Assembly (NCBI GenBank): GCA_019775845.1
Contig: JADQAV010000026.1
Coordinates: 558,001-622,000 of the forward strand
DNA: 64,000 bases
Direction of reading: 5' to 3'
From: Myrmaecium sp. VS I D KN 1
Lineage: Eukaryota > Ascomycota > Dothideomycetes > Valsariales > Valsariaceae
Every line of letters starts with the position of its first letter. The first letter of the stretch is position 1. Positions 1 to 40,458 of this stretch are shown piece by piece. The notes below the pieces were generated by a model, which ran no database searches, was not told the origin of the DNA, and worked only from the letters and a program-made list of their open reading frames with translations. The translations under genes and the position numbers were made by a program.

Positions 1-3000
1 AGGGGTATGTTTTTCACTTTGCCGGTGCGGGGTTATTATTTGATATCTATTAGAATAGTATATCTTGTGGTATATTATACGGAGTGTATGATCTGTCACT
101 GGTGAATTGGCTGAGGATGCACTAGTTCAACGTATATCTATATTCTATCCTCTTTGTCTTTAGAAAGCTATATTTGACTTTCCGATGCGGATATTCCTAC
201 TCCTTTTGTTTTTCTCTATCGCGGGATTTCCCCCACGGCGGTCCGTGTGACTTGATGTACTCTATGTCATCTCGTTTACTTTTTCGCATCCGCTTTTCGC
301 TTTTTCGCTTTTATGAGATGGGGAATATGAAACATGGATCGGATCGATAGCAGTGGCTTGTACGGGAGCGACGTGGCGGGCGAATGAAAGGTCTTTTCTA
401 TTAACTACCATCGGCAGCACTACAGTATATACTACTTTGAATTGTACGTTGAACTAGTATTTGTTCCCTTCAGTCCTCTATAATTATAAATCCCTCTCTA
501 CAATATAAGGACCGGGACGGTGTGGAGGATGCTTGTCGCGGGCAGCCGCAGCCGCAGCCGCGGCCGCGGAACACTGCCGAAGCGCCGACCTCTCGTGCCG
601 GCACGGGGGAACTTCCGATATGCCGATCGACTGGACCTAAGGAAGCGATCCCGGTCCCCGTCCGAATTCCGAGTGCGAGTGCGAGTGCGAGAAAGGAGAA
701 CGAGGGTAAGGAATAGGAGATGAGAACGTGTGCGAGAAATGAGGGAGCGTTTGGATTTCGTATCGATGGTCGTTGGGGGTTCTGGACCCCCCTTTGATGA
801 TGTGGTTGGTTTGTTGGTTGGTTGGTTGATTGGTTGCTGGTCAGCGTCATCGATATCGATGAGTGATGTGAACCCTCGATGAGTTCAGTTGTGATGACAT
901 GTCGAGACCCTGATCTCGATGGACAAAACACACTATTTACTATCTGCTGAGGGTTTGGGGATTGTGAAGTCATACGTTCTTTTGTATGTGGTTTTTCTTC
1001 CGCTTGTTGATGTTTGATGCAGTAATTATCAACTATCATCGAGCGTTTCTTGTTTCTTTTCAGCTGACGAGAATCGTGAACGATGTGGAGGTGAGTTCGA
1101 TGTGTGAGGTGTAGGCCTCCGTCTCGTTGCTATGGGTGGTGGTGTTGGTTCTTTCCTTTGCACGAACGTCCGGCCACCGCCATCCACCACCACCATCCGC
1201 TGCGAGGCTGAGCAAACCGCACCTGCATTCCACGGTCCGATTATCTTACATAGAAGGATGCGATTACACGATCTTTAACTAGCCATCCCTTGGCGGGTGA
1301 TGGATGTAGGATAGATGGCTTGACTGTTGGAAGAAGGCTGCCTGCTGCTGCTACTGCTGCTACTGCCACTGCTACTGCACGCTGACATCAAGTACAAGTA
1401 CCCGATCTCCGAGAGACGGGAGAGCAGCGTGAGCAGCGTTTGCGTTCCTCCGCCCTAACTTAACCCAACCCCAAGCCGTGCCAACCCAACCTGACTTGAC
1501 GGGGGCACCGCCTCCGAGGCTGAGGGATGGATATTGGGATCGAATCGAAGGATGGAAGGAATGTTGGTCGGCCATTGCATGCAGGATGCTATGTACTTGT
1601 TTACATATGGCAAGTGGATCAGGTCCGAAGGATGTGAGTTCTAAGGGGTGTCACCGGCTGATGAGTTAGAGAATCTGCATGGTGTTTGATGAACCATCTG
1701 TCACGGTGTACCATCGCTTGTCGTCGTCGTGCGACTGAGGTACTACAGTACAACAACACAATTGCCCTCTCGGTCCCTCGCATCAAACAACGGCCGAGCC
1801 TTGGCCCTGTCAAGAGCATGGGAGGGCATGGGCATGTGTTGGAATGTGGCCCCGACACTCCACCTCTCACGCGACGTGCGCTGCTTTCGGACGGGGGGGC
1901 GCGGGCGCAGGCGCATTCCTTTCCTCGGGGGCGGAAAGAAAAAAGATGGGGAACAATCGCAGCGCATGCCCTCGGCGTTTGCGGTGAGACAGACCGGACC
2001 GGGACGTTTTGCTTTGTTGCTTTGTTGGATGCAGGAGGGCAGGAGAGAGATCAAAGGGGTTTCGCTAGAGAGATGTTGTGTGTTGTGTGTGTGATTCTTT
2101 GATCGATGCACTTGCCCGTCGTCATTTAACGGTGGTAGGAGTTGGTAACCATGAGCGACAGATACCCTGAACCCATAACCCAGCGAAGAAATCATAAGAA
2201 AAGAAAAACTCTCTACCAGTCTTTCGGACGTAAGAGCAGTAAGGAAAGTGTAAGTTAACCATAAAAAAGCCGGGTGGGGGCGGACGGACGACGGACGATG
2301 GACGGATGCCCGGCTGGTCGGCCAGCCGGCCGGTCGGATGGCGGCAGCGGAAATACAGTATGGTCGCGATGCGAAAAAACACCGCGGCGCCAGGAACGAG
2401 AAGGAAAAGGGAAAGAAAGGAAGATAAAACTGCTGGGATAGTGGAGCGGAAAGATATGGGGACTGGCATGATTTTGCATCCGGCTGGCCTCTCCCCGGCT
2501 CGAGGGTTTGTTGAACGTGAAGGGGGATTGGGAAGAAAAAAACGCTGGCAGGGGCCGGTTTTAATTACGGTCTCGCTTTTTGGCGTCGCCCAAAGGGCCA
2601 AAGGGCCAAAGGGCCCCGTTAACCACACCATCCCGTCGCTCCCGGCGCTTCCTGCTACCTACATTACCTGACTACCTTACCTACCTAACTACTAGTAACC
2701 ACCGAACCACCCGCGCCCTCTTCTCTTCCCTCTTCCCTCTTCCCTCTTCTCTTTCTCTCTCTTCTCTCTCTTCCTCCTTCTCCGCCGCCTTCTCCGCCTC
2801 CGCCTCCGTCTCTCCCATAAGGATCCTGCGCCCGCGACCTGCGACCTTCCACTCGCCGGTACTCCTCGAACCGCCCACCGTCCATCCACTTTCCTCCCCG
2901 TCCCAGCCAGCCTTGAACGAAGGCTCACCCGTCGCGTGCGCTGCCGCCGATCTGCCTGTTTTGGCCCGCGAAGCTTGGCCGCATCTCGCTGCATCGGACC

Positions 3001-3046
3001 GTCCACCTCTCCCCCCAATCGTCCACGGCCGCGCTGTAGCTCCACG
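1..3046. other. Intergenic region upstream of AUR1
   Basis: No convincing gene is seen. Open frames here are short, low in complexity and overlap on both strands. A TTGG-rich simple repeat lies near 802-836. A strongly pyrimidine-rich tract (about 2710-2815, mostly CT and TC) lies 230-340 bases before the AUR1 start. It probably belongs to the AUR1 promoter or 5' leader, as is common before expressed fungal genes. Confidence 0.6.
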
Positions 3047-4623
3047 ATGCAGTCTACATCATACTTCCGCTTCGACGACAGCAACACCGCCCACATGCTC
3101 TCCAACGTCAAGGTGCCGGTGCTGGCCAACATTCCGACGCTCATCCCGCACCGCCTGCGCCGGAAGTGGAGGGCGACGAGGTCGCGGATACGCAGCAGGC
3201 AGTCCCCTACGTCGTCCATCAGCTCGCTCGAGACCTCCCTCTCGCCCTCCCTCACGCTCCGCTCCCTGCGAACCCACCAGTGGTCCTTCTACGACGGTCA
3301 ATACCTCTTCCTGGCCATCGTTTGCATCTTTTCTTTGTGCATGCTCGAGTCGCCCGGCCCGCTCACCAAGACCTTCATCGCCTCTCTCCTCCTGACTGCT
3401 CTCATCATCCCGGCCCTGCGACAAGTCTGCCTACCATTCCTACCTGTGGCTACCTGGCTATTGCTCTTTGCCTCCGCGAAGTGAGTATCTTCCCTCCTCT
3501 TCTCCCTCCCCTCCTCCGCGGTGGTGCTCCGGTGGTTCTCGGCGTCACAATGGCGTTTCGAAACCACCAGGGGTGGTGAGACCTCGGCTGTCACAGCAAA
3601 TGCAATGCTTCCCAGCGCCTGTGCCTTTGGCCTCCCCCGCAATCGTTGCTAATGCGCTCCCAGATACATTTCCGGAGACTACCGCCCTCCCGTCTGGGTC
3701 CGCGTCCTTCCTGCCTTGGAGAACATCCTGTACGGTGCGAATCTGAGCAACATCCTGTCTGCGCATAAACACGTGGTATTAGACGTTCTGGCTTGGATAC
3801 CCTATGGCCTCACGCACTACGGCTCTCCGGTTGTGGTCTCGGGTTTGCTCTTCATCTGGGGACCGCCTGGGACGCTTCCCGTCTTCTCGCGGGCGTTCGG
3901 ATACATGTGCCTCGCTGGTGTCATCACTCAGATCCTGTTCCCATGTACCCCGCCGTGGTACGAGAACAAATATGGCCTCGCTCCTGCCAACTACTCCATG
4001 CCTGGCTCTCCCGCTGGCCTAGCCGCTATTGACAAGCTCCTCGGAATCGACCTGTACACATCCGCTTTCACGGCGTCGCCCATGCCGTTTGGTGCGTTCC
4101 CATCTTTGCACTCCGGCTGGGCCTCTCTCGAGGCGCTCTTCCTGGGCCACCTTTTCCCTCGCCTGATGCCTCTTTTCTTGGCCTACGTGATGTGGATTTG
4201 GTGGGCGACAATGTACCTTTCCCACCACTACGCGGTTGACCTGGTTGGCGGCAGTCTCCGTAAGTTTCGCTCTTTCGTCTGGCGAGTTTTCAGCTAACCT
4301 CTTCAGTGGCCGGTGTGATCTTCTTCGTTGCCAGAGCCAAATTCTTGCCTCGCGTGCAGATGGACAAGGCCTTCCGCTGGGACTACGACTACGTCGAAAT
4401 TGGCGAGCCCAACGATCCCTACTCTAACGGTGTTCTCGATTTCTACGAGGAGTTCCAACCGCCCCACTCCGACAGCGACGAATGGGCCATCGGATCATCC
4501 TCGTCATACTCCAATGGATCGAGGACTCCGTCTACTGGTTGCAGGAGTCCTGTGGACGACAATCAGTCTATGTGGGAAGGTGACACGCTCGCGTCTCATT
4601 CGGATCACGAGCAGTCACGATAG
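3047..4623 (+). CDS. aur1: Inositol phosphorylceramide synthase catalytic subunit (Aur1)
   Basis: Three exons: 3047-3480, 3664-4259 and 4307-4623, 448 residues. Aur1 moves phosphoinositol from phosphatidylinositol to ceramide in the Golgi. It is the essential fungal sphingolipid step and the target of aureobasidin A. The protein has several hydrophobic segments from about residue 100. It carries both parts of the PAP2-type active site: PSLHSGW with His294, and SHHYAVD with His333 and Asp337, matching the yeast His255 and His294/Asp298 arrangement. The first intron (183 nt) has a GTGAGT donor and ends CCCAG. The second (47 nt) has GTAAGT and ends TTCAG, and both restore the frame exactly. The Ser/Asp-rich C-terminal tail (from about residue 400) is cytosolic in the family. 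The start was chosen because it follows a CCACG context and gives the usual N-terminus. Length fits the family. Confidence 0.93.
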
Positions 4624-6676
4624 TGGTGATTGCGCCTTTCGCCGTTAGCCGTTGTGCTTTTCTTTCTCGCGCCGTCCTTTTGACGAAAACATTTTGGGGA
4701 TCATCGCCCTGGCCACGTTATAACGAATAACGCATTTTCTCGGAGTTTCTTGAGCATTTGAACCGGCTTCGGACCTGTATCTTTTCTTCCCATTGCACAG
4801 GCATCACTCCGCAGCATCCCGGATTCGAATCGGCCGTTGATTGACAGCGTTTCTCCGCTAGCCGGGTAATGGTTTGATACCGGATTGGAACGCGTTGCTG
4901 GTCAACTTTTTTTTTCCCTTCTGCCGCGCCGGACTCGTTTGGGATTTCACGCCTCGAAAATCCTTATTGGAACCAGCATTTGACCCTTCGTCGCGACTGC
5001 ATGCATGCATCAAGGATCGTCTTCATCCTGCCATCCGTCGACAGTCAATTTCCGGAAACTTCCGCAGGTGACTTTTGCTGGCATCACGAAGTTTTTATCT
5101 TGTTCTAAAACATCAACCTTACCCATTCTTCTTTGCTGGGCAGTTTTGGAGAGCATCTTTCCACGTTGCATTTGCTCTCTGTCATGATACCCGTAACGGT
5201 CGCTTCTGTATCACCTTCCGTCGAAGGAAGAACGTACATCATCCTTGTATAACACACAACAACACACAACAACGCCCTCGCTTTCTGTCTCAAGGTCACC
5301 AGGTGTAAAAGATGAGAAGGCGAGTGGAGTGGAATGGAGTGGAGTGGGCGCGTTGTGTCGCGTTCGGGTGGTGGGGACCAGCGATCAGGGCCTGATTCCG
5401 GAAGGAGAAGAGATGGTATTTTCTTTGGGGCGAATTGGTTGGAAATTGGGGGCTATGAATGGGGAAGTAATTGGTAATTTTCAACTGAAGGGGACATCAC
5501 CTTCTGGAAAAAAGGGGGCACTGAAGTCGCGAGGTGGACCGGGGAGAGAAGGAGAGGAGATACGAATTCTTTTTTCTTTCGCCATGGGCTGTCTCTTCCA
5601 TTCTTCCCTCCGGAGCGCGCGGTTTTCCCTTGATAGGGTCTTCCTCCGGTCGAGAAGAGGACGACACCGCTTCGGTGGTTCTCTTTTCTTCTCAGTTTTT
5701 TTCATCTTTTCCCTCTTGATCCTCGGAACCAAAAAGGAAAAGGAAGCACCTTTCGGAGTGGTAATGATGCAGGGAGAGAGAGGGAGACGAAAAAGCAGGA
5801 GGAACGGGAAGACGAAGAGAAAAAGAAAAAGAGGGTGTTGGAGGCAGAGGAAGGGGGTAACTGAGGAGCCCGCCGCTATAAATACCTACCTCCACCGCCT
5901 ATCATGCATCTCTACCCAGTCGTCATCATCACGCCTCCTACCTTCTCAACCTCCTATCCTCACGTATACTTTTACTTTTCACGTTTACCCATCACCTTTA
6001 ACCTCCTCCTCCTCCTCATTCTCCACGCTTTAGTATATATATAGTTCAGCTTGATACGTAATGCTTAATCCTTTATCTTTCTGTCCTATTCCATCTCTTT
6101 ATGTCTGGTGTTGTCCATCTGGGGCTTGCTTCGTGCTGGCTCTTGCTCTTCCCTGACTTTCTCATCACTTTGTGCGTGTGTGGTTGTGCCGGGTAGAGAG
6201 GTGGAGGGGTTGGTGGGATGAGTGGTTACGGAAGAAAGAAGAAAGACGAGGAACAGGAAGGCAGACACATGGATGGCTCGCGGCGGTTAGGAAGAAGGGG
6301 GGTTGAAGAAAGGCTGGAGGGGATACGTGATCATCCATGCACCGGACTTCCTTCCTCTCTACATCGACATCATCACAATCGTTCACGGCTTCAGCAGACA
6401 GATGCTCTGATTCTTGCTTTCTATTTCTCAACCGTCTTGTTGTATTGTTGTACTGTACATTACACCACCCCGTCTCGCATCCTCTCCCGCCCCGCCCCGG
6501 AAGGGTCGATCTGGGTTTCCTGGGAGCGGAGAGATCATCTACCACCATCCCTCCTTTCACCTTTCATCTTCCCTCCTCACGCAACCCAAGGACGGGCAGC
6601 GAAGCGCACGCCGTCTCGACGGGTCGGGGGCTCGCTCTGGCTCTGGCTCTGGGGAGCGCGTTTGCCTAAAGTTATT
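4624..6676. other. Intergenic region between AUR1 and the secreted-protein gene
   Basis: AUR1 ends on the + strand and the next gene also ends here on the - strand, so both 3' ends face this 2 kb stretch. A good TATA box (TATAAATA at 5877-5884) is followed by pyrimidine-rich DNA on the + strand, which could start a transcript. No + strand frame downstream looks like protein. A 262-codon open frame at 5245-6033 is low-complexity and I do not accept it as a gene. Confidence 0.5.
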
Positions 6677-29758: not shown

Positions 29759-31294
29759 ATGTCGTCCCGCCTCGTCCAGCTCGGACTCTTGTCCCTCGCC
29801 TCCGTGGCCGCCGCGCACCCCTACAAGCCGGAAGGCTATGGCAACTCCACCGTCGTGGCCGCCGCCGGCGCCGGCGCCGCCGCGAGCACGGGCGGATCCT
29901 ACGTCGGGTACGGTCACGGCCACGGCCACAGCCGCTTCCACTCCAAGAAGCCTCAGACCCAGACCTCGGTCGTCTACCTGACCGTCACCCCCTCGCCCGC
30001 TCCCTCCGCCTCCGAGGCCACCGCCGAGGCCGCCGCCGTCACGAGCTCCCTGGCTTCCTCCGAGGCCGTCGCCCAGGCCGCCGCCGTCAGCAGCTCCGTC
30101 GGCGCCGCCGCCGTGGCCGGGAGCTCCTCCCAGTGCGTGGCCTCCTACGTGACCGTCACGGCGACCGACCGCGTCACCGTCACCGTCACCCCCGGCCAAG
30201 CCGCTGCCAGCACGGCCGCCTCCAGCGCCGCCGCCGAGGTCAGCACGGCGATCGCCGGCGTCCAGACGTCCTCCGTCGCCTACGTCAACAACGGGTACGG
30301 TCAGAGCTCCGCGGCGGCTGCTCCGGTCGCGTCGTCCAGCGCAGCGGCTGCGGTCCCCGTGTCCAGCAGTGCTCCTGTCTCCAGCGCTGCTCCCGTCGTC
30401 AGCTCTGCCGTTGAGAGCACCGTCGCTCCCTCCTCCAGCGCTGCCACGTTCGCCGCCTACTCGAGCGCCGCCGCCGTCAGCTCCGCGCCGGTCTCCTCCG
30501 CTGCCGCCAGCTCCGTCATCGCCAGCACCTCCGTCGCCAGCTCCACCAGCGCCGCGGCGTCCAGCACCAGCACCAGCACCTCCAGCACCAGCGGCACCAA
30601 GCGCGGCGTCCCCTACAACGACGCCAGCCTGACCACCTGCTTCGAGAACACCGACGTGACGTGGGCCTACAACTGGGGCTACGACAGCGACGGGCTGAGC
30701 AGCGCGTTCGAGTACGTGCCCACGCTCTGGGGCACCAGCTCCGACTTCACCGACGGCTGGAACGCGAGCGCGACCGCCCTCGTCGCCGCCGGCACCACCT
30801 ACTTCTTCTCCTTCAACGAGCCGGACGAGAGCTCCCAGGCCAACCTGACCCCGGCCGAAGCCGCCGAGGGCTTCATGACGTACATGCAGCCCCTCAAGGA
30901 CGCCAACAGCGCGGTGCAGCTCGGCGCGCCCTCCGTCACCAACGGCGAAGGCTCCATGGGTCTCACCTGGCTGTCCAACTTCCTGACAGCGTGCGCCGAC
31001 TGCTCCGTCGACTTCGTCAACATCCATTGGTACTCCTCCCCCGACCAGACCGACTACTTCAAGTCCCACGTCCAGCAGGCGTACAACCAGACGGGTCTGC
31101 CGGTCTGGGTGACGGAGTTTGGATGCACCTCGGGTTCCGATGAGGAGATCAGTGCGTTTTTGGAGGAGGTTCTGCCCTGGATGGATGAGCAGGAGTATGT
31201 GGCCCGGTATGCGTATTTCATGGCCGAGGAGGGCTCGCTGGTGTCGAGTGGCGGGCTGAGCTCGTATGGTTCGACGTATGCGACCGCGTCGTAG
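29759..31294 (+). CDS. GH128 beta-1,3-glucanase-like cell-wall protein (Asl1-like)
   Basis: Single exon, 511 residues. A signal peptide (about 1-19, LGLLSLASVAAA) is followed by a Gly/His/Ser segment. A long Ala/Ser/Val-rich, probably O-mannosylated stalk follows (about 50-278). The catalytic domain begins at about 283, right after a Lys-Arg pair (281-282) that fits Kex2 cleavage. GH128 enzymes cut beta-1,3-glucan in fungal walls; the yeast relative Asl1 is cell-wall associated. Visible motifs are GVPYNDASLT, WAYNWGYDSDG, VPTLWGT, FFSFNEPDE (candidate acid/base Glu354), FVNIHWYSSPDQTDYF and VWVTEFGC (candidate nucleophile Glu453). Codons end almost always in C or G, more than in neighbours, which suggests strong expression. 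There is no C-terminal GPI signal; the protein ends shortly after the domain. Confidence 0.92.
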   Translation: MSSRLVQLGLLSLASVAAAHPYKPEGYGNSTVVAAAGAGAAASTGGSYVGYGHGHGHSRFHSKKPQTQTSVVYLTVTPSPAPSASEATAEAAAVTSSLASSEAVAQAAAVSSSVGAAAVAGSSSQCVASYVTVTATDRVTVTVTPGQAAASTAASSAAAEVSTAIAGVQTSSVAYVNNGYGQSSAAAAPVASSSAAAAVPVSSSAPVSSAAPVVSSAVESTVAPSSSAATFAAYSSAAAVSSAPVSSAAASSVIASTSVASSTSAAASSTSTSTSSTSGTKRGVPYNDASLTTCFENTDVTWAYNWGYDSDGLSSAFEYVPTLWGTSSDFTDGWNASATALVAAGTTYFFSFNEPDESSQANLTPAEAAEGFMTYMQPLKDANSAVQLGAPSVTNGEGSMGLTWLSNFLTACADCSVDFVNIHWYSSPDQTDYFKSHVQQAYNQTGLPVWVTEFGCTSGSDEEISAFLEEVLPWMDEQEYVARYAYFMAEEGSLVSSGGLSSYGSTYATAS

Positions 31295-32469
31295 GATGTG
31301 TGGGTGTGATGGGAGGATAATGGGGTTTGTTTCTGGTTTCTCTATTCGATTCTTCTTCTTGTTTACATCTTTTTTCCCTCTCTACCTCACCCTCCCAACC
31401 TCTTCTTCTCCTTTTTATTCCCTCTCTTCTCCCTGCTATGTATCATATCATCATCATACAACCTCGAGATCACCTTGGATATCGATTCATCATCAGGGTC
31501 AGGCAGGCAGAAAAAGGCAGAAGGAAACAAAGGAAGAGAAGAAGAGAAGAAGAAAAAAACCCTTACCCCCAGCCAGCTGGGAAAGGAAGGAACAAGAGGT
31601 AGAGAGCGAGAGAGAAAGGAAAATACATTCTTCCCCCCGGCCGAGGGCTGGGGCCTTTTTTTTTCTCGTTATTAGTTTATTATTGATCCCTTTGTTTTCT
31701 TCCCTTTGTTTTTGTTTTATATGTATGTTTATATGTATGTACTGTTATGTTCCTTTGTTTTGTTTGCGCACGATGGTTTTTTCGAGCATTCGAAAGGAAA
31801 AGAGAAAGGGGGGGGATGGAGTAACGGCCCGGGGCCGGTCTTGTACTTGTTCGAATACCACATTCCCCACCCCACTGAGTGGGGAGGGAGGTTGAAAACT
31901 CGAGTCCTTCATTTTCTTCTCCTTCTTTGGCCAGGCGGTGCCCGATTACCTCCTTATTGTTTCTTGCTATTGGGACGTCGTCCTCAGATCGATACCGTAC
32001 TCAGGCATCCTGCCATGCAGGCAGGGTGGGAACGTTAGAGTGAAAGCAAAAAGCCAAACTAGATCCTTCTCCTACTCCTCACGTTAACAGCGTTTTCTTC
32101 CTCCTTCCTACTTTCTCTGCAGTAACGTTGTTTGCGGGAATGGAAACTGTATCTATCCATCCCGTACGTACGTATGTATGTTTCCCCTTCTCCGCTTTGC
32201 GCGGTGCGGTGCGGTACGTTGATATCCTCCTGCCGTTTTTGTCGATTTGATTTTGAGGTACTAAGGTAAGGTGGGTGCTCTGTTACTCTTCGGACTTGAC
32301 TGGACTGGATTGAAGCAAAGCGAAGGGAAGGGAAGGGACGCGAAGAGAGGGACGTAGTGTGGGAGCGTGATAGCTCTGGAGCGTATGGGATGGAGTGGGA
32401 TTGGGTGGGGTGGGGTGGGGTGAGGTGGGGAGGGTGGGATGAGGGATGAAAGAGGAAAGAAGGGGAGTA
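31295..32469. other. Intergenic region between GH128 gene and transposon
   Basis: No gene is seen. The first part is T-rich and purine-rich and probably holds the GH128 3' untranslated region. Near the transposon the + strand becomes G-rich (GGGGTG repeats around 32405-32435). Base composition is ordinary until the sharp change at 32485. Confidence 0.5.
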
Positions 32470-32520
32470 GAGCCTTTGCGCAGCGATAATTATGCCGGGA
32501 AATATCAGCGAGAAATATCG
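32470..32520 (+). repeat. Left terminal inverted repeat of the transposon
   Basis: Starts GAGCCTTTGCGCAGCGAT and continues AATTATGCCGGGAAATATC. It is preceded by TA at 32468-32469. The first 18 bases match the right end exactly. Confidence 0.85.
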
Positions 32521-35500
32521 ATTTATATAAGCTGGGTCGCCCCTATATATAAATTTATATATAGAGCTGACCTTAGTTATATTCTTAGTAATATTAAACT
32601 TATATATTATTATTACCTTATCCTATTATTACTATAGTCGCCGCCGTCGTCGTTTTATTATACTTAATACTAGATATAGATAATATTACTTTTATTATAT
32701 TAATTCTTTAGCTTTAGGCCTAATATTACTATTATAGGTATTATTTAAAGCGTTATAACCTTAAATTACTATATTATTTCCTTATAGTAAGTAGTATCTT
32801 ACTAATCTTCCTAACGTTATAATAAAGAGTAGATTTAGATAATATCTCCCGGACTATATATTAGTAGAAGGTTACTAATAATAGTATTTTATATAAATTT
32901 ATACGCGAGTAGATATATTATCTTATACCTCTTCTTTATATTAATACTATAGAGTTCTTTAATTATAATAGGCTGACCGTTAAGTTTATATTCTATTTAA
33001 TATTATTAAGGTTATTATAGCCTGCGAGGCTTTATAATTAAATATATTTCTTCTATTACTATATAGGCTATCTATCGCGCGTTTTTAATAATATTTATAT
33101 TTATAGTAACTAAATTTATAACTCTTCTAGTATAAAGACTAGTTTTTAATAAATATAGAACTTTATAGTACTTCGTAAAAGTAATAAATACCCTTAGTAG
33201 TAGTAATTATATATAGAGCCTTATTAAGAGAACTATATAGGCTTTCTATTAGCCTAATATATTATAGAAGAAGTATTACTCTAGCTATAAGTATTAATAT
33301 AGTTTAAAGTATTAAGTAATTATTATACTTAATAGTTTTATTAGCTCTTTATACGGGCCCTTTTATAATATATAAAATAACTAGTATATACTTATTTACT
33401 TAAATATCTAAGGTAGGATAAGAGAGACGCTTAAGGATAGAAAACGCCTATATTTATATAATAATAATACTTATAAGTACTCTTTTAGTATCTTCGCACC
33501 GTTTATATATATTATAAGAAGGTGTTACTTAAATAAAGAGTAAAAGGAGTTTAATAAGAAGCTATTATCTATTAGGATTACTATTAAGTAAGTATTTAAT
33601 TTAATATAGAATTTATAAATAAGTAGTACTTTTATAAAGTATAAAAAGAATAGTTCTTCGCCTATTACTACGTACTATCGTATAGTAATACTCTTAACAA
33701 ACTATTATACTTATATAAATAGTAATTAGATTAGTTTACTCTTTATAGTAAAGCTTTTTAGTATTAAGAATTACTTACTAGCGGGTAGATAGAATAGCTT
33801 AACTTAAGGTTCTAGAACTTAAGTATAGTAATATTTATATATATATAAAGCTGCGGCTGTAGTCTAGGCCTAATATTATATAATATTATTATAAATTAAT
33901 AGTATTAAAGTTATAGTTATTAGATAGACTAATCTAGTATTAAGGAACTAGTACTTTAATATTTAGTAAGCTTTTAGTTAATAAGCTCTCGATTAATATA
34001 TAAAAATAATACTACTATTAATACTTTTAAAATCCTCTAGGACGGCGCTTTCTAGCTAGATAGAAGCTATAACTATAATAAATTATTATAGTCTTACTAA
34101 AAAAGAGCCTTTTTAGATAATTTATTACGGAGTTTTCTTATATAAGCTATTTTACTACTAGGTTCTAGGTACTTTAAGAGCTTCTATAAGTTACTTCTCT
34201 TATTATCTTAATTAACGCTTTAAACTAACTCTTCCGCTTAAGGATATCTTATTATATTATCTTTTTAATAGATTTAATATACTTCTTTAATAACTTTATA
34301 TTATCACGCTGTAGTAATTAACAGTATAAAGCTAGGTATTTATATAGTTACTCTTTTATTAACTCTATTTATAACTTCGAGCTTTCTATTAATAGCTTTA
34401 GATAGGCGCTTAGTTCTTCCTATAATAGTAATATCTTATTACTCTTCTATTACTTTAATAATAGCTGTAGTATACTAGAAATACTATAAGTTAATATCTT
34501 TAAGATATTATAAGTTAATATTCTTAAAATACTATAAGGCGTTAGTATAACGGGCGTCCTTTTAATACTTAACTTAATATTCTTTATATTTACTTCTTCT
34601 TCCTCTTCCTCTTCCTCCTCTTCTAATATAGAGATACTACTAAATAGCTCCTTACTATATTTATTAAGGTACTTAAGTATTATTTATTTATAAGTCTATT
34701 CCTTCCTATCTAATTCTCTCTTTTTTTACGTAAGTCCTATTAGCTCGCTCTTTTACTTTATTAAAAAAGAAAATCTATACTTCTAAAGTATTAAAGAGTT
34801 TACCTTATTATTTACTATCTTTTATAACTATATTAGACTACTAATATATTTCTTAATAGGCTATAATAGCTACTTTTATATAACTATTAATATTAATATA
34901 ATTAATTCCTACCTTATCGCGAAACTATTTTATAATAATATTATAGAAATAGTTCTATATATCTTTTTCCTAGTAATTATGTATATTAAAGATAGTCTTA
35001 TATAAAGCTATCTTATTCTCCTTAGTTAGAGTAATACGTTACTTCTTAGTACTAGTATTATTACTTAATTCGGCCGTATCTAATAGCGCTACGGATAGGG
35101 CCTAGAAAGGCCCTTTATATAGTATTATTAACGCCCCCCGCCTAGTTACTTAGAAGTACCTCTACTACTTATCTTCCTTTAATATCTATAGCCTCTCCTT
35201 ACTAGTAGCTTTAAGATAAGCCTAATACTTTCTCTAAGGCTTCTTTAATATTAGCTCTTATAATACTTTTATTTATATAACTTATATAAAGCGTAGTAGT
35301 AGTAGTATCGCGGCGTTAAGAGCTTATAAGAGGGATATAGTTAGGAGTAGTAGTAAGGGCCCCTATAATATCTAGCTAATTAGTAATAATAATATAACGC
35401 TAGCTAGCTCGCTATATCTATCTAATTAAGGCGTTAATACCTCTATTATTAAAGTTAGTAAGAGTATACTATTAAGGTCTATAATAATTATCTTAGTATT

Positions 35501-35740
35501 ATTATCGCTATCTAACTATTATTTATAAATATCTACTAATAACGCTATTAAAAAGATGCCCTTAGATTAAGATTATAGGCTTATAATTCTCTGGACTATC
35601 TAGGCTATCTACGGTAAAGGGCCTGTAATATTCCTCGTCTATATACCTATTTTTCGCAGAAATAATATATTTCGCGAAGAAATTTCTCCTAGTAGGTCTA
35701 GATAAAGATGGTTTAGTAACCTTCCTAATAAGGCAGGAGG

Positions 35741-35790
35741 CGATATTCTTTTTACGATATTTCTTGCATAAAATCGCTGCGCAAAGGCTC
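35741..35790 (-). repeat. Right terminal inverted repeat of the transposon
   Basis: On the minus strand it reads GAGCCTTTGCGCAGCGAT followed by TTTATGCAAGAAATATC. It is followed on the + strand by TA at 35791-35792. Inner positions differ from the left end partly by C/T and G/A changes, as expected from RIP. Confidence 0.85.
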
Positions 35791-35792
35791 TA

Positions 35793-36299
35793 GTAGAGTG
35801 AAGCGACGATAGAGGAAGGCGTCGATACAGCTTATCTCAGCTGTGCAGCAAGAGGGAGAGAGAGACAGATGTAAATGCTTGATAGATGACTGGTTGGATG
35901 ACTGGTTGGATGGATGAATAGAGAGGAAGAAAGCGAGAGAGGGAAAAGGTGAAGGCGAATGGATAAAGAGAGAGACACACACGCACGCAGACAGAAAAGA
36001 CTTCAAGTTCCTTCATATATCTACACGGGAACCTCACCCATGCCACACTCTTCCTTCCCTCTCTCGCCCTCTCATTTTCTCTGTCCAGACAATCAACAAC
36101 AACAACAGCGGCAACAACGACAATGTATACTATGCCATACCAATCAATCAATAAACCACCTACCCACCCACCACTCCTCTTCCCCTCACGCTCGAATGGA
36201 ATGCACAAACAGAGGAAACAAATGAAAAGAGAAAAAGAAAGCATGCCTCCCCCAAACCACCTCTTTCCCCTACCACAGCGCATCACTCCCCCCTCCCCT
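35793..36299. other. Intergenic region between transposon and SEC24 3' end
   Basis: Composition returns to normal immediately after the transposon end. The stretch has simple repeats (GGTTGGATGACT-like copies near 35888-35912, CAACAA near 36089-36118) and no supported gene. Confidence 0.5.
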
Positions 36300-39200
36300 T
36301 TACCCCCAATAAGGCGTCCTTAAGCCAATAAACGTGCTACTCGTCTGATCCAAATCGGCCTCCTTCTTCCGTTGACCGGAGAGCTGTGTGCGCAAGAAAA
36401 AAAAAAGTCAGCCGGGTTCCCATCGATATAATGCGATCGAGCGAAAAACAGAGAGAGAGGGAAAAAAAAAAAAAAAAAAAAAAAAAAAAACGCAAGAGAA
36501 AGAACAAGGGAGAGATAGCAAAGAAAACAGGCTACCGCCCACATACCTCAAGCTGAATATGCCGATGCACATGCACGAGCCAATCCACATAGCTCTGCGC
36601 CTCCCCGTTGCGATCCTCATACAGCAACCGCGCAAACTCATACTCCGCCCCATCGAAGCCCTGGCGCGCCAGCTGGATCGTGAGCGCCTTGCTGCCGCGC
36701 GCCGTCGCGAGGTACTGCAAGATATTGCGGACCTGGGCGTTGAGGTGGGTGTCCAGGACGGGGAGGTGGTTGAGCGCCGGGTCGAGGGACTTGAGGGAGG
36801 TGTGGCCGTCGCCGAAGAGGTCCTCGAGCAGGTGCGGCGACACCTGCGCGTGCAGCCAGAGCAGGGTGGTTTGGCCGTTGTCGACGAGGTAGGCGCCGCC
36901 TTCGTCGATGTTGGCGAAGGAGGCCCGCACCGCGGCCGGCATGCGCAGGTGGCCTTTTTCGTTGGCGAACCCGTCGTGCGGCGCGAGGTTGTGGAGGGCG
37001 TAGATGCGTGGGTAGAGGTAGAGGGAGAGCTCGAGCGCGCCCATCGACTTGATGAGCCGCATGTCGTGCACGCGGCGGTCGGTGGGTTCCTTGCCGCCTT
37101 TGAACGCGCGCGACTTGATCAGCCCGAGCATGTACATGGCGAACTCCTTCAGGTTCTCCGGCAACACCAGTTGGCCTGGCGGATGTGAGCCGGAGAAGTT
37201 CTTGCGGTAGCCGGCGAGGATGTCGATCGTCTTCTCCGTGAGGGCGGCGCGGATCTCCTTCAGCGGCTTCTCCGTCATCCGCACCGCCGCCTCCTTGGCC
37301 ATGATGCTGACGACGGCGTCTTGGTCGATGAACTTCATCGCTTCCATCGCGCCGTCGCTCACGCTCGCGACCAGGTTGCTGCATCGCACGCGGCGCTCAC
37401 CGCTGGCGGTGGTGTAGAGAAGCGCGCTCTGGAAATGGGCATCCAGCTTGGGATCGAGCTTGCCGTCGTAGCTGAACATGACACCGATGGCCTTGTCGGC
37501 ATCGATGACGCCGAACTCGAGATCCGCGCCGAACGTGTGGTGGAAGAAGTTGCCGTGGTAGGCGGAGACCTGGAGGCCGTTGGAGCAACGGACCTTCATC
37601 AAGGCCAGGTAGCCCGTTTCTCGTGTGACGGTGTGTTTGATCTCCTTGGAAAGCCTAAGCGTATCGCGCGGCGCATGGAACGTAGGGTAGTAATACGTCT
37701 CTCCGCCAGTTGTAGCAGATACATGACCTGTGATCAAGTTAGCATAAACGCATACCGCCCGTACCAGTTTTTCCGCTTACCGATCGTCGCAATATCAAGA
37801 TAGCCACCGCTGGGCGAAGCAAGGAAGAAGTCCACGCCCATGCCATTCTCCACCATCATCTTCGCGATGTCCCTGTACCCAGGATGCTCCGTTGTCAGGA
37901 GCTTCTTCTCCGCATCGCTGTTGCTGTGCACCTTGCCGTCATCTCGCAGGAACAAGCGACCGGGACCCCACGTGGGCAGGCTCGCGAGGGAGCAGGCGAT
38001 CTTGCCTCCGGTCGCCTTCAGCGCGGAAAACGCGGCCTTGAGCGCCGGGAGGAGCGCCGGCTCAGGGTTCTTGATCTGCGAGAACATGCTCGGCAGCTGG
38101 GTCAGCAGAGACATGATCACCGCCTTCGACTCCTCCGGGTCGACGAAGAGGCCGTCGCTCAACGGGACGAACGGATCCTCGATGTCCGGCATGACCATCA
38201 TCTGCGCCTTGTCCAAGCTGGGGCTGAGATTGTAGAAGTGGATCTCCTTGTCGAACGTCACGATGCCCACCTTCGCGCCCTCGGGGAGCTGTCGGCCCGT
38301 GCTGCTGTTGTCGTCCTCGTCCTTCTGCCCAGCAGCATTGTCCCCGTACAGCGCGCTGATGATGCCTTCGCAGAAGCCATCGAGGAAGCCCCGGTTGACA
38401 GACTCGGCGCTGACGTCGATGAGGAACAGCCAGCGCAGGCCGACGGGTTCTTTGGTCCAGTACTCCTTCGGCACCTTGAACTCGACGGTGCCGGAGTAGA
38501 GCTCCGGCCGGTGCAGGCGGTCCACGCGGATGCCGGACGGGTCGGTGGGCGCGAAGTATTCCGGCTCGACGTCGTTCGGGAACGTGCACATGTTGCACAC
38601 GAACTTGTTGCCGCCGGAGCGGAACGTCATGAACGGGTTGATGTAGGCGCGGCATCGCGTGCACCGCGGCGGGCCCTTGTCGCCAAAGTCCAGCACGGGG
38701 ATCTGCTGCTCGCCCTCCTGCAACGGGGCCAGGGGCTGCAGGATCAGGCCCAGCGGCAGATGTGTCGACGCCAGCGCGTCCGCCGATGAGGGGATGTTGT
38801 TGAGGGTGAGACGGGCGAACTTGGGGGAGCAGTTGCCCTGATCGTATGCGACGAAGGGGACCGCGGCCGGGGGCGGCAGGTGCTGCTCCATGGTGGGGTA
38901 GACATTCTCCAGATAGTACTGGGCAGGCACGTCTCTAGATCGGGGAACGCTGGGTATTTGCTCAGGATCCACCCGACCTTGCGCAGAGGACGCCGGGGCG
39001 CCGGGCATGGGCGTGCCAGCAGGCAGCGGCGTCGACGGGTTCATCGGGCTGAAGGGCGTGCCCGCTCCCGGTATCTGCGGGCTTCCTTGGTTGAGGAATT
39101 GCGTGGGCGTGCCGATCCCCCCCTGCGGCATGCCGTTGAACGCCTGTGAACTGCCGGCGGGCCCCTCGATGTTATGATATGCGTGCCTGTCCTTCTTCTT

Positions 39201-39590
39201 GTGTCGAGGCGCATGGCCTGCAGCATCTCCTCCAAAGCCCATGGCTCCCATCTGCCCAGTCAACGCTGCCATATCCGATTGACCTGGAACCGGGGAGGCC
39301 TGAGGGGGAAAGTACCCAGGCTCCTGGACTGGGGGCGGCAGCGGCTGCTGCTGCTGCTGTTGCGGGAAGTACTCGGCATTGGGTTGCGGCGTGCCGGCGA
39401 ACTGGGAAGGCGGAGCGTACGATGGAGCGCCGCCCTGTTGATATCCTCCCGGGCTGGGCGCGACGGGCGGGCGAAACTGGGGGAGGTTGTCCTCCCGCCG
39501 TCTCGGCGGTTGGCCGCTCGTGTTCGGCGAGGTGAGGGGGGATTGCTGCCCGAGGGCATGGTACATGGAGAACTCTCCGCCGATGTTCAT
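36300..39590 (-). CDS. sec24: COPII coat subunit Sec24
   Basis: Three exons: 39590-37781, 37727-36547 and 36383-36300, 1,024 residues. Sec24 pairs with Sec23 in the inner COPII coat and selects cargo for vesicles leaving the endoplasmic reticulum. The N-terminal 250 residues are Pro/Gln/Gly-rich and disordered, with a KKKDRHAYHNIE block. The Sec23/24 zinc finger has Cys310, Cys313, Cys332 and Cys335. The trunk domain follows (LRWLFLIDVSAESVNRGFL, about 390-400), then the beta-sandwich, helical and gelsolin-like domains (RIYALHNLAPHDGFANEK, VDNGQTTLLWLHAQVSP). Intron 1 is 53 nt (GTAAGC...CACAG). Intron 2 (36546-36384) has a GTATGT donor and contains a 29-base run that reads poly-T in the sense direction. 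The last exon encodes a 27-residue tail ending TPYWG. An upstream in-frame ATG at 39710 is less likely. Length fits fungal Sec24. Confidence 0.95.
36462..36490. repeat. 29-base A run inside the last SEC24 intron
   Basis: A pure run of 29 A on the + strand, poly-T in the sense of SEC24. It lies about 80 bases before the acceptor of intron 2. Length may be inexact because long homopolymers are hard to sequence. Confidence 0.9.
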
Positions 39591-40458
39591 CGCGTCGCGG
39601 TTCGGGGGGCGAGAGGAAGGTCGGATTGGCGGGATGCGGTGGTTACGGGGAGGTAGGTAGGTCGGCGGGTGGTCAACGCTCGGCGGAGGGGTGCATGCCC
39701 TGGCGAACAAAGGATGATGCTCTCAGCGGGAGGTGGGAGGACGGTCGAATGGCATCAACCAGGCAGGTAGAGATGTTGAGGCTCAAACAGAGGGATATCT
39801 TGGGGAGAAAGCGCGATTGTTTGGTGGTGAGGACTGACGGGGGAGGTCGGCCTGTGAACACTTGACCAAATGGCATCAACTTTTGGGAGCAGCCCGGGCA
39901 ATGGCCAGTGAGCACTGGCGGTCGGGCGAATCACGGGCCATGGCCGATGCGGGAAGGACTGCACCGGTCTGGTGGACCCCTAGACGACAACGACAACAAC
40001 GACAACAACGACAACAACGACAACAATGAACACCATCGTCAACACAGCGAGGGATGCAAAGCTACCATTCCGTTCATTGATTAACCAAGGTATCGCTCAA
40101 GGTTTCAGAAGACGTGCCGCAGATATATAAGTATATACCAAGTGAGTTCCTCTAACAACATAGCTATCATCTAAACAAAGATCTATGGTCCCGCACGTAC
40201 ACCAAAACTCCACATACAAAGTGAGGCATACAGATCATATCATGATCAACATGTCGCCAAATCCGGATCCCAATCCAGCAGATCCCAGGGTGGTATCTCA
40301 TAAAGTGCGATCCAACATGAACATGAAAGAAAGACAACAAAGAAGAACTGCATGGTCAAACCCCCATAATCCGGCCCCCACGTCAGTAAGGACGAGCGGA
40401 CTTTCCTTCCTCAACCCAGCATCACCATCCTCCAGACCTTCCCCAAATCCCTCAGGGC
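39591..40458. other. Intergenic region upstream of SEC24
   Basis: This stretch holds the SEC24 promoter and the 3' flank of the DUF7702-type gene, both on the minus strand. A 9-base tandem repeat (CGACAACAA-like) lies at 39985-40026. No gene is supported. Confidence 0.5.
39985..40026. repeat. Short tandem repeat, period 9 (CGACAACAA)
   Basis: About four and a half copies with the first unit shortened to CGACAA. It lies about 400 bases upstream of the SEC24 start codon and does not overlap any gene. Confidence 0.85.

What the first reader, a model, noticed from the sequence alone, without database searches (positions are those of the whole stretch)
32468..35792. RIP-mutated transposon with still-readable TA-flanked inverted ends
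The block is almost devoid of CpA and TpG, yet its outer 18 bases are identical and GC-rich at both ends. The mutation process stopped exactly at the element borders and did not leak into the flanking unique DNA. The interior (3.2 kb) is long for a Fot1-type element, so a nested insertion or an unnamed family is possible.
Basis: partly seen in the sequence, partly recalled or inferred. Interest (0 to 1): 0.7.

Follow-up and report, generated by a model that had tools for sequence, protein, structure and literature searches.

The report
RIP-killed Pangu-type Harbinger DNA transposon
A fungal jumping gene of a known but little-studied kind appears to have been mutated to death by the host's repeat-targeting defence while its extreme ends stayed readable; it is not the Fot1-type element first suggested.

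Summary
Window 32469-35791 is a 3,323-bp DNA transposon, almost without CpA/TpG, with perfect 19-bp inverted ends. The Fot1/TA reading does not hold. Five elements found in the same assembly share these ends: this one, a second full copy (C53), one full copy of a related subfamily (C24) and two MITEs of 311 and 355 bp. Their borders show a 3-bp ANT target duplication, exact in 4 of 5 (AGT, ACT, ATT, ATT; the fifth AGT/TGT). The last T of the duplication next to the terminal A makes a false "TA". A weak DDE_Tnp_4 (Harbinger) match, below Pfam's cut-off, occurs in two copies, in a frame where transversions gather at third codon positions. ANT duplications, ends starting AG and about 3.5 kb fit the Pangu group of the PHIS superfamily (PMC4482050). 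Comparison with an unmutated MITE shows CpA/TpG sites changed far more often than other C/G sites, and a DIM-2-like and a RID-like methyltransferase gene are present. RIP fades inside the element, roughly 30-110 bp from its ends, not exactly at the border. New member of a known kind.

The parts
32466..32468 (.). left target-site duplication AGT
   Evidence: same layout in four other elements of the assembly, three of them exact
32469..35791 (.). whole element, 3,323 bp, RIP-mutated
   Evidence: second copy C53:39865-43360 at 74.9% identity over 3,204 aligned bases
32469..32487 (+). left terminal inverted repeat, 19 bp, CpA/TpG retained
33028..33828 (+). remains of transposase ORF (approximate limits; upstream exon not resolved)
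   Evidence: DDE_Tnp_4 PF13359 match at 33268-33624, E 0.013, below curated cut-off; third-codon-position bias of transversions 22 of 34 (vs C53) and 73 of 150 (vs C24) (limits chosen)
34269..35018 (-). possible second ORF (tentative; strand from base skew only)
   Evidence: transversions vs C53 show a period of three, 29 of 42 and 9 of 10 in one class, but not vs C24; GC skew -0.25 in 34001-35000; no domain found
35773..35791 (-). right terminal inverted repeat, 19 bp, CpA/TpG retained
35792..35794 (.). right target-site duplication AGT

Best explanation
[quoted passage not shown] A DDE transposase cut the element at its 19-bp inverted ends and inserted it into a 3-bp ANT site (here AGT) between a glycosyl hydrolase gene and a SEC24 gene, duplicating the site (shown by the border pattern; cut-and-paste chemistry inferred from the family). 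Because the element was present in more than one long copy, the host's repeat-induced point mutation turned nearly all CpA/TpG into TpA in the interior, breaking the transposase reading frame (CpA/TpG-targeted change shown against an unmutated MITE; the premeiotic timing and the enzymes are inferred). RIP faded toward the edges, so the last roughly 30-110 bp, including the TIRs, stayed readable. Deletion derivatives of 311 and 355 bp carry no RIP signature, most simply because they are below the length RIP needs (inferred).
For: RIP signature. Same ends in a second full copy, in a related full copy and in two MITEs, with ANT duplications exact in 4 of 5. DDE_Tnp_4 in two copies at the matching place and frame, E 0.013 and 0.053; positive control: another RIP-mutated element, C61, is recognised by the same read-through with E 1e-7. 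Third-position transversion bias in that frame. RIP direction: MITE C47 against the RIP-mutated C24 ends, 21 CpA/TpG sites changed to TpA and 7 kept, against 13 changed and 61 kept at other C/G sites; Fisher p 1e-7; 4 CpA/TpG sites with other changes left out. MITEs have substrate indices 1.05 and 1.24 against 0.07-0.11 in the three long copies. DIM-2-like gene C17:134.9k (429 bits to PDB 9bap) and a second C5-methyltransferase at C4:38.6k with the motif EQT (that 9bap is DIM-2 and that EQT marks RID/Masc1 are recalled). ANT duplications, TIRs of 11-40 bp starting AG or GG, mean ~3487 bp, found in two ascomycetes: Pangu (PMC4482050).
Against: Both DDE_Tnp_4 matches are below Pfam's cut-off and the two copies are homologous, so they are not independent; three forward frames of C24 gave none, and the genome-wide search with that family at E up to 10 found only C61, not these elements. 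A period of three in the presumed second ORF is absent against C24. One MITE (C35) has AGT/TGT, not an exact duplication. MITE C35 against the right end of this element gives no RIP signal (4 changed, 6 kept, 3 other; outside CpA/TpG 10 of 46 changed), as expected in a spared edge but not evidence for it. Estimated identity of this copy and C53 before RIP is only ~73% under one rough assumption, below the ~80% usually quoted for RIP, so they may not have been each other's partner. The single-sequence fold of the transposase was useless (pLDDT 44.8).
Confidence: 0.87

Rival explanations
1. Fot1/pogo-type Tc1/mariner element with a TA duplication.
For: A TA does stand at both outer edges; Tc1/mariner elements are common in fungi (general knowledge).
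Against: Flanking bases outside the TA match in 5 of 5 elements, which a TA duplication does not predict (0.001 by chance with equal base frequencies). No Tc1/mariner domain in 12 frames. The only DDE_1 match in the assembly is elsewhere, at C66.
Confidence: 0.04
2. PHIS superfamily element but not Pangu: a canonical Harbinger or Nuwa lineage, or an unnamed fungal lineage that came to use ANT sites.
For: Groups were defined by duplication type, and the transposase here is too damaged to be placed on a tree; PHIS lineages with 0, 2 and 3-bp duplications are known, including PHISTA with TA (PMC12730594).
Against: ANT duplication plus AG start plus length fit only Pangu among the groups described in PMC4482050.
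Confidence: 0.08
3. AT-rich DNA from mutation pressure or foreign origin rather than RIP.
For: Only GC and dinucleotide composition is seen in this one copy.
Against: Only CpA/TpG is depleted while CpG is not (obs/exp 1.34); direct comparison with a MITE shows the change at CpA/TpG sites; three long copies in different flanks share it and short relatives do not.
Confidence: 0.01

Closest known systems
Pangu group of PHIS transposons (Harbinger2 in Repbase; Han et al. 2015, PMC4482050)
   Same: ANT target duplication, TIR of 11-40 bp starting AG, length ~3.3-3.5 kb, DDE transposase of the Harbinger kind, reported from ascomycetes
   Different: All three long copies found here are heavily RIP-mutated; second ORF only hinted; transposase tree not possible
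Canonical PIF/Harbinger
   Same: 3-bp duplication, DDE_Tnp_4 domain
   Different: duplication is TWA there, ANT here; Myb/SANT second protein there, no domain found here
Bacterial IS5 group
   Same: ANT target site (as stated in PMC4482050)
   Different: eukaryotic element, 3.3 kb; relationship rests on that paper, not tested here
Fot1/pogo (Tc1/mariner)
   Same: TA seen at both edges, inverted ends, fungal host, RIP-mutated
   Different: the TA is part of an ANT duplication plus terminal A; no DDE_1 match

Membership tests
Pangu (PHIS superfamily) | target duplication 5'-ANT-3' | tested here: met
   exact in 4 of 5 elements: AGT, ACT, ATT, ATT; fifth AGT/TGT
Pangu (PHIS superfamily) | TIR 11-40 bp starting AG or GG | tested here: met
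   AGAGCC..., 19 bp perfect in this copy and in C53; C24 and the MITEs have imperfect TIRs starting AGAG or AGGG
Pangu (PHIS superfamily) | DDE transposase of the Harbinger kind | tested here: inconclusive
   PF13359 E 0.013 and 0.053, below cut-off; same frame supported by codon-position bias; not found in C24 frames scanned
Pangu (PHIS superfamily) | two ORFs, the second without known motif | tested here: inconclusive
   second block with period of three against C53 only, not against C24
Pangu (PHIS superfamily) | transposase groups with Pangu in a tree | not testable with these tools
   RIP-damaged sequence, no fungal genomes held; no restoration made
Fot1 / Tc1-mariner | 2-bp TA target duplication | tested here: not met
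   next flanking base also duplicated in 5 of 5 elements
Fot1 / Tc1-mariner | DDE_1 transposase | tested here: not met
   no match in 12 frames at E up to 1; genome-wide search finds DDE_1 only at C66. RIP damage weakens a negative result
Repeat-induced point mutation | C to T at CpA in repeats | tested here: met
   21 changed/7 kept at CpA/TpG vs 13/61 at other C/G, MITE C47 vs C24
Repeat-induced point mutation | RID-type methyltransferase in the genome | tested here: met
   C4:38.6k C5-methyltransferase ORF of 570 aa with EQT (the meaning of EQT is recalled), plus DIM-2-like ORF. Orthology not tested by a tree
Repeat-induced point mutation | acts before meiosis in crosses | not testable with these tools
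   needs crosses

The most novel reading that the evidence does not exclude
RIP's blind edge keeps the TIRs of long elements usable, so RIP-killed copies stay mobilisable in trans and give rise to short MITEs that RIP cannot see: the defence itself would push this Pangu lineage from long autonomous copies to short, RIP-proof passengers. The C24/C47 pair (a RIP-mutated long copy and an unmutated 355-bp derivative with homologous ends, in one genome) is the kind of pair this predicts.
Probability: 0.15. Interest if true: 0.45.

Novelty: new member of a known kind. Interest (0 to 1): 0.22.

Why it matters
It adds a RIP-mutated Pangu-type family with matching MITEs to ascomycete transposons, and shows how an ANT duplication next to a terminal A imitates a TA duplication, which could cause misfiling of RIP-mutated Harbinger elements as Tc1/mariner when only one copy is read. 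The pairing of long mutated copies with short unmutated derivatives in one small genome lets the length limit and the edge of RIP be measured.

Tried and rejected
Frame finding by comparing all frames of the three copies with blastp: uninformative, matches in nearly every frame because of AT-richness. Pfam scan of all six frames of this copy and three forward frames each of C53 and C24; the reverse frames of C53 and C24 were not scanned. Single-sequence structure prediction of the read-through transposase: mean pLDDT 44.8, not used, no fold search made. TIR search with up to 3 mismatches: 26 matches against 20 for the reversed control pattern; 9 of the 26 belong to the five elements, the other 17 are at chance level and only one of them (C13) was looked at and dismissed. 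Subterminal GAAATATC motif: 3 AAATATC in the outer 80+80 bp of this copy, 1 in C53, 0 in C24; not pursued. Search of C61 for matching inverted ends (16 bp or more, up to 2 mismatches): none. Empty site in relatives: not possible.

Papers: PMC4482050 passages and its section on Pangu; PMC12730594, PMC9594970, PMC4592977, PMC3562529, PMC4522978, PMC12543289 passages only; other papers seen as search listings with abstract starts. The 400-bp and 80% limits of RIP are as stated in PMC3562529 and PMC4522978. A search for Pangu with transposon, fungi and Harbinger gave 4 papers.

Full report
OBSERVATION. The block is real. Within 32468-35792, GC is 0.257, CpA obs/exp 0.06 and TpG 0.11, whereas CpG is not depleted (1.34); TpA/ApT is 1.59 and (CpA+TpG)/(ApC+GpT) 0.11. 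The rest of the window has 0.65-0.66 and 1.13-1.20. In the 500-bp bins flagged by low GC or composite RIP index the other flagged bins of the window (1-500, 2501-3000, 30001-30500) have substrate indices of 0.83-0.92, so they are not RIP blocks. The outer ends are a perfect inverted repeat.

BORDERS OF THE MUTATION. A two-change-point fit on CpA/TpG density over 30001-38000 puts the change at 32535 and 35760 (within 2 lnL: 32495-32580 and 35690-35760), so RIP fades inside the element. Of the element's 28 CpA/TpG sites, 6 lie in the outer 120 bp on the left, 8 in the outer 190 bp on the right and 14 in the ~3.0-kb interior. The outermost 40 bp of C53 and C24 likewise keep 4/4 and 4/3 sites at left/right. 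The flanks are untouched (56 and 73 sites in 500 bp). The claim that mutation 'stopped exactly at the borders' is therefore slightly wrong: it stopped a little short of them.

COPIES. The window is C17:558001-622000 of a 25.66-Mb assembly of 66 contigs. Searches with the ends and the whole element and with three of the relatives give: a second full copy on C53 (3,496 bp, 74.9% identical over 3,204 aligned bases), a full copy of a related subfamily on C24 (3,455 bp, 55.9%), and two short elements, C35 (311 bp, its first 145 bp 77% identical to the right end of this copy) and C47 (355 bp, homologous to both ends of C24). The search tool scores only the best candidates, so these are lower bounds.

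TARGET DUPLICATION. With the element written AGAG...CTCT, the three bases on either side are AGT/AGT (this copy), ACT/ACT (C53), ATT/ATT (C24), ATT/ATT (C47) and AGT/TGT (C35). It is the same letter, not its complement, so a palindromic target preference does not explain it. Because every duplication ends in T and the element begins with A, TA appears at both edges by construction.

CODING CONTENT. Reading this copy in six frames with X at stops, the only Pfam match at E up to 1 is DDE_Tnp_4 (PF13359, 15.6 bits, cut-off 24.8, E 0.013) at 33268-33624 on the + strand. C53 gives the same family in the corresponding place (E 0.053); C24 gives none in the three frames scanned. The genome-wide search with this family found only a further, also AT-rich and CpA-poor element on C61 (E 5.2e-8), which the same read-through also recognises (1e-7). 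Transversions, which RIP does not make, fall at third positions of the DDE frame: 22 of 34 (p 0.0002) against C53 and 73 of 150 (p 7e-5) against C24 over 33028-33828, and 6 of 9 and 29 of 64 within the Pfam match itself (p 0.04 and 0.03). The wider limits were chosen after looking at the profiles. So the frame was under selection before RIP. A second block at 34269-35018 shows a period of three against C53 but not against C24; its strand is guessed from base skew. No domain was found there.

RIP AS AGENT. Compared with the unmutated MITE C47, the C24 ends changed at 21 of 28 CpA/TpG sites (4 more with other changes left out), against 13 of 74 other C/G sites (p 1e-7). MITE C35 against the right end of this copy or of C53 gives no excess (4 changed, 6 kept; 3 changed, 4 kept), consistent with a spared edge but uninformative. 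The assembly encodes a DIM-2-like protein with BAH (score 30.7, just under its 30.8 cut-off) and methylase domains and a separate C5-methyltransferase with EQT; that EQT is the RID/Masc1 hallmark and that PDB 9bap is DIM-2 are from memory. A third methylase match, in a 2,026-codon frame, was not followed.

UNSETTLED. Counting transversions and context-free transitions, this copy and C53 were perhaps 73% identical before RIP, a rough figure that treats every transition outside CpA/TpG as older than RIP. Duplicates above 400 bp and 80% identity are usually quoted as RIP targets (PMC3562529, PMC4522978). Either the coding core was similar enough, or closer partner copies have been lost or are missing from the assembly.

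PLACEMENT. Han et al. 2015 define Pangu by ANT duplications, TIRs of 11-40 bp starting AG or GG, a mean length of ~3487 bp, a DDE protein and a second ORF without known motif, in 15 genomes including two ascomycetes (PMC4482050). This element meets the duplication, TIR and length features; the protein features are inconclusive because of RIP damage. MITEs shorter than the RIP limit lacking the signature have been described in Mycosphaerella graminicola (PMC4522978, passages). Hence: a new member of a known kind, with a misread border as the main lesson.

LOCATION. The insertion lies between a glycosyl hydrolase gene (Glyco_hydro_cc, 29759-31294 +) and a SEC24-like gene (36532-39710 -). The host species was not identified.

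Noticed in passing
L044 (C61:1-10000), about 3001-6000: A further CpA-poor, AT-rich element with a DDE_Tnp_4 match over Pfam's cut-off; no inverted ends of 16 bp or more were found at its margins, so it is another Harbinger-type lineage or a truncated copy.
   Followed up: partly
C66:419298-419510 of the assembly: The only DDE_1 (Tc1/mariner, pogo-type) match in the genome-wide search, with 2 TAA inside.
   Followed up: no
C17:125146-125718 of the assembly: Third C5-methylase match inside a 2,026-codon open frame, about 9 kb from the DIM-2-like gene.
   Followed up: no
window 32300-32465: Purine-rich, G-run-rich tract directly left of the insertion (GGGTGGGGTGGGG and similar).
   Followed up: no
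window 32499-32519 and 35750-35765: GAAATATC-like motif repeated just inside the TIRs (3 AAATATC in the outer 80+80 bp; shuffled mean 0.02; but 1 in C53 and 0 in C24), perhaps a binding site.
   Followed up: partly
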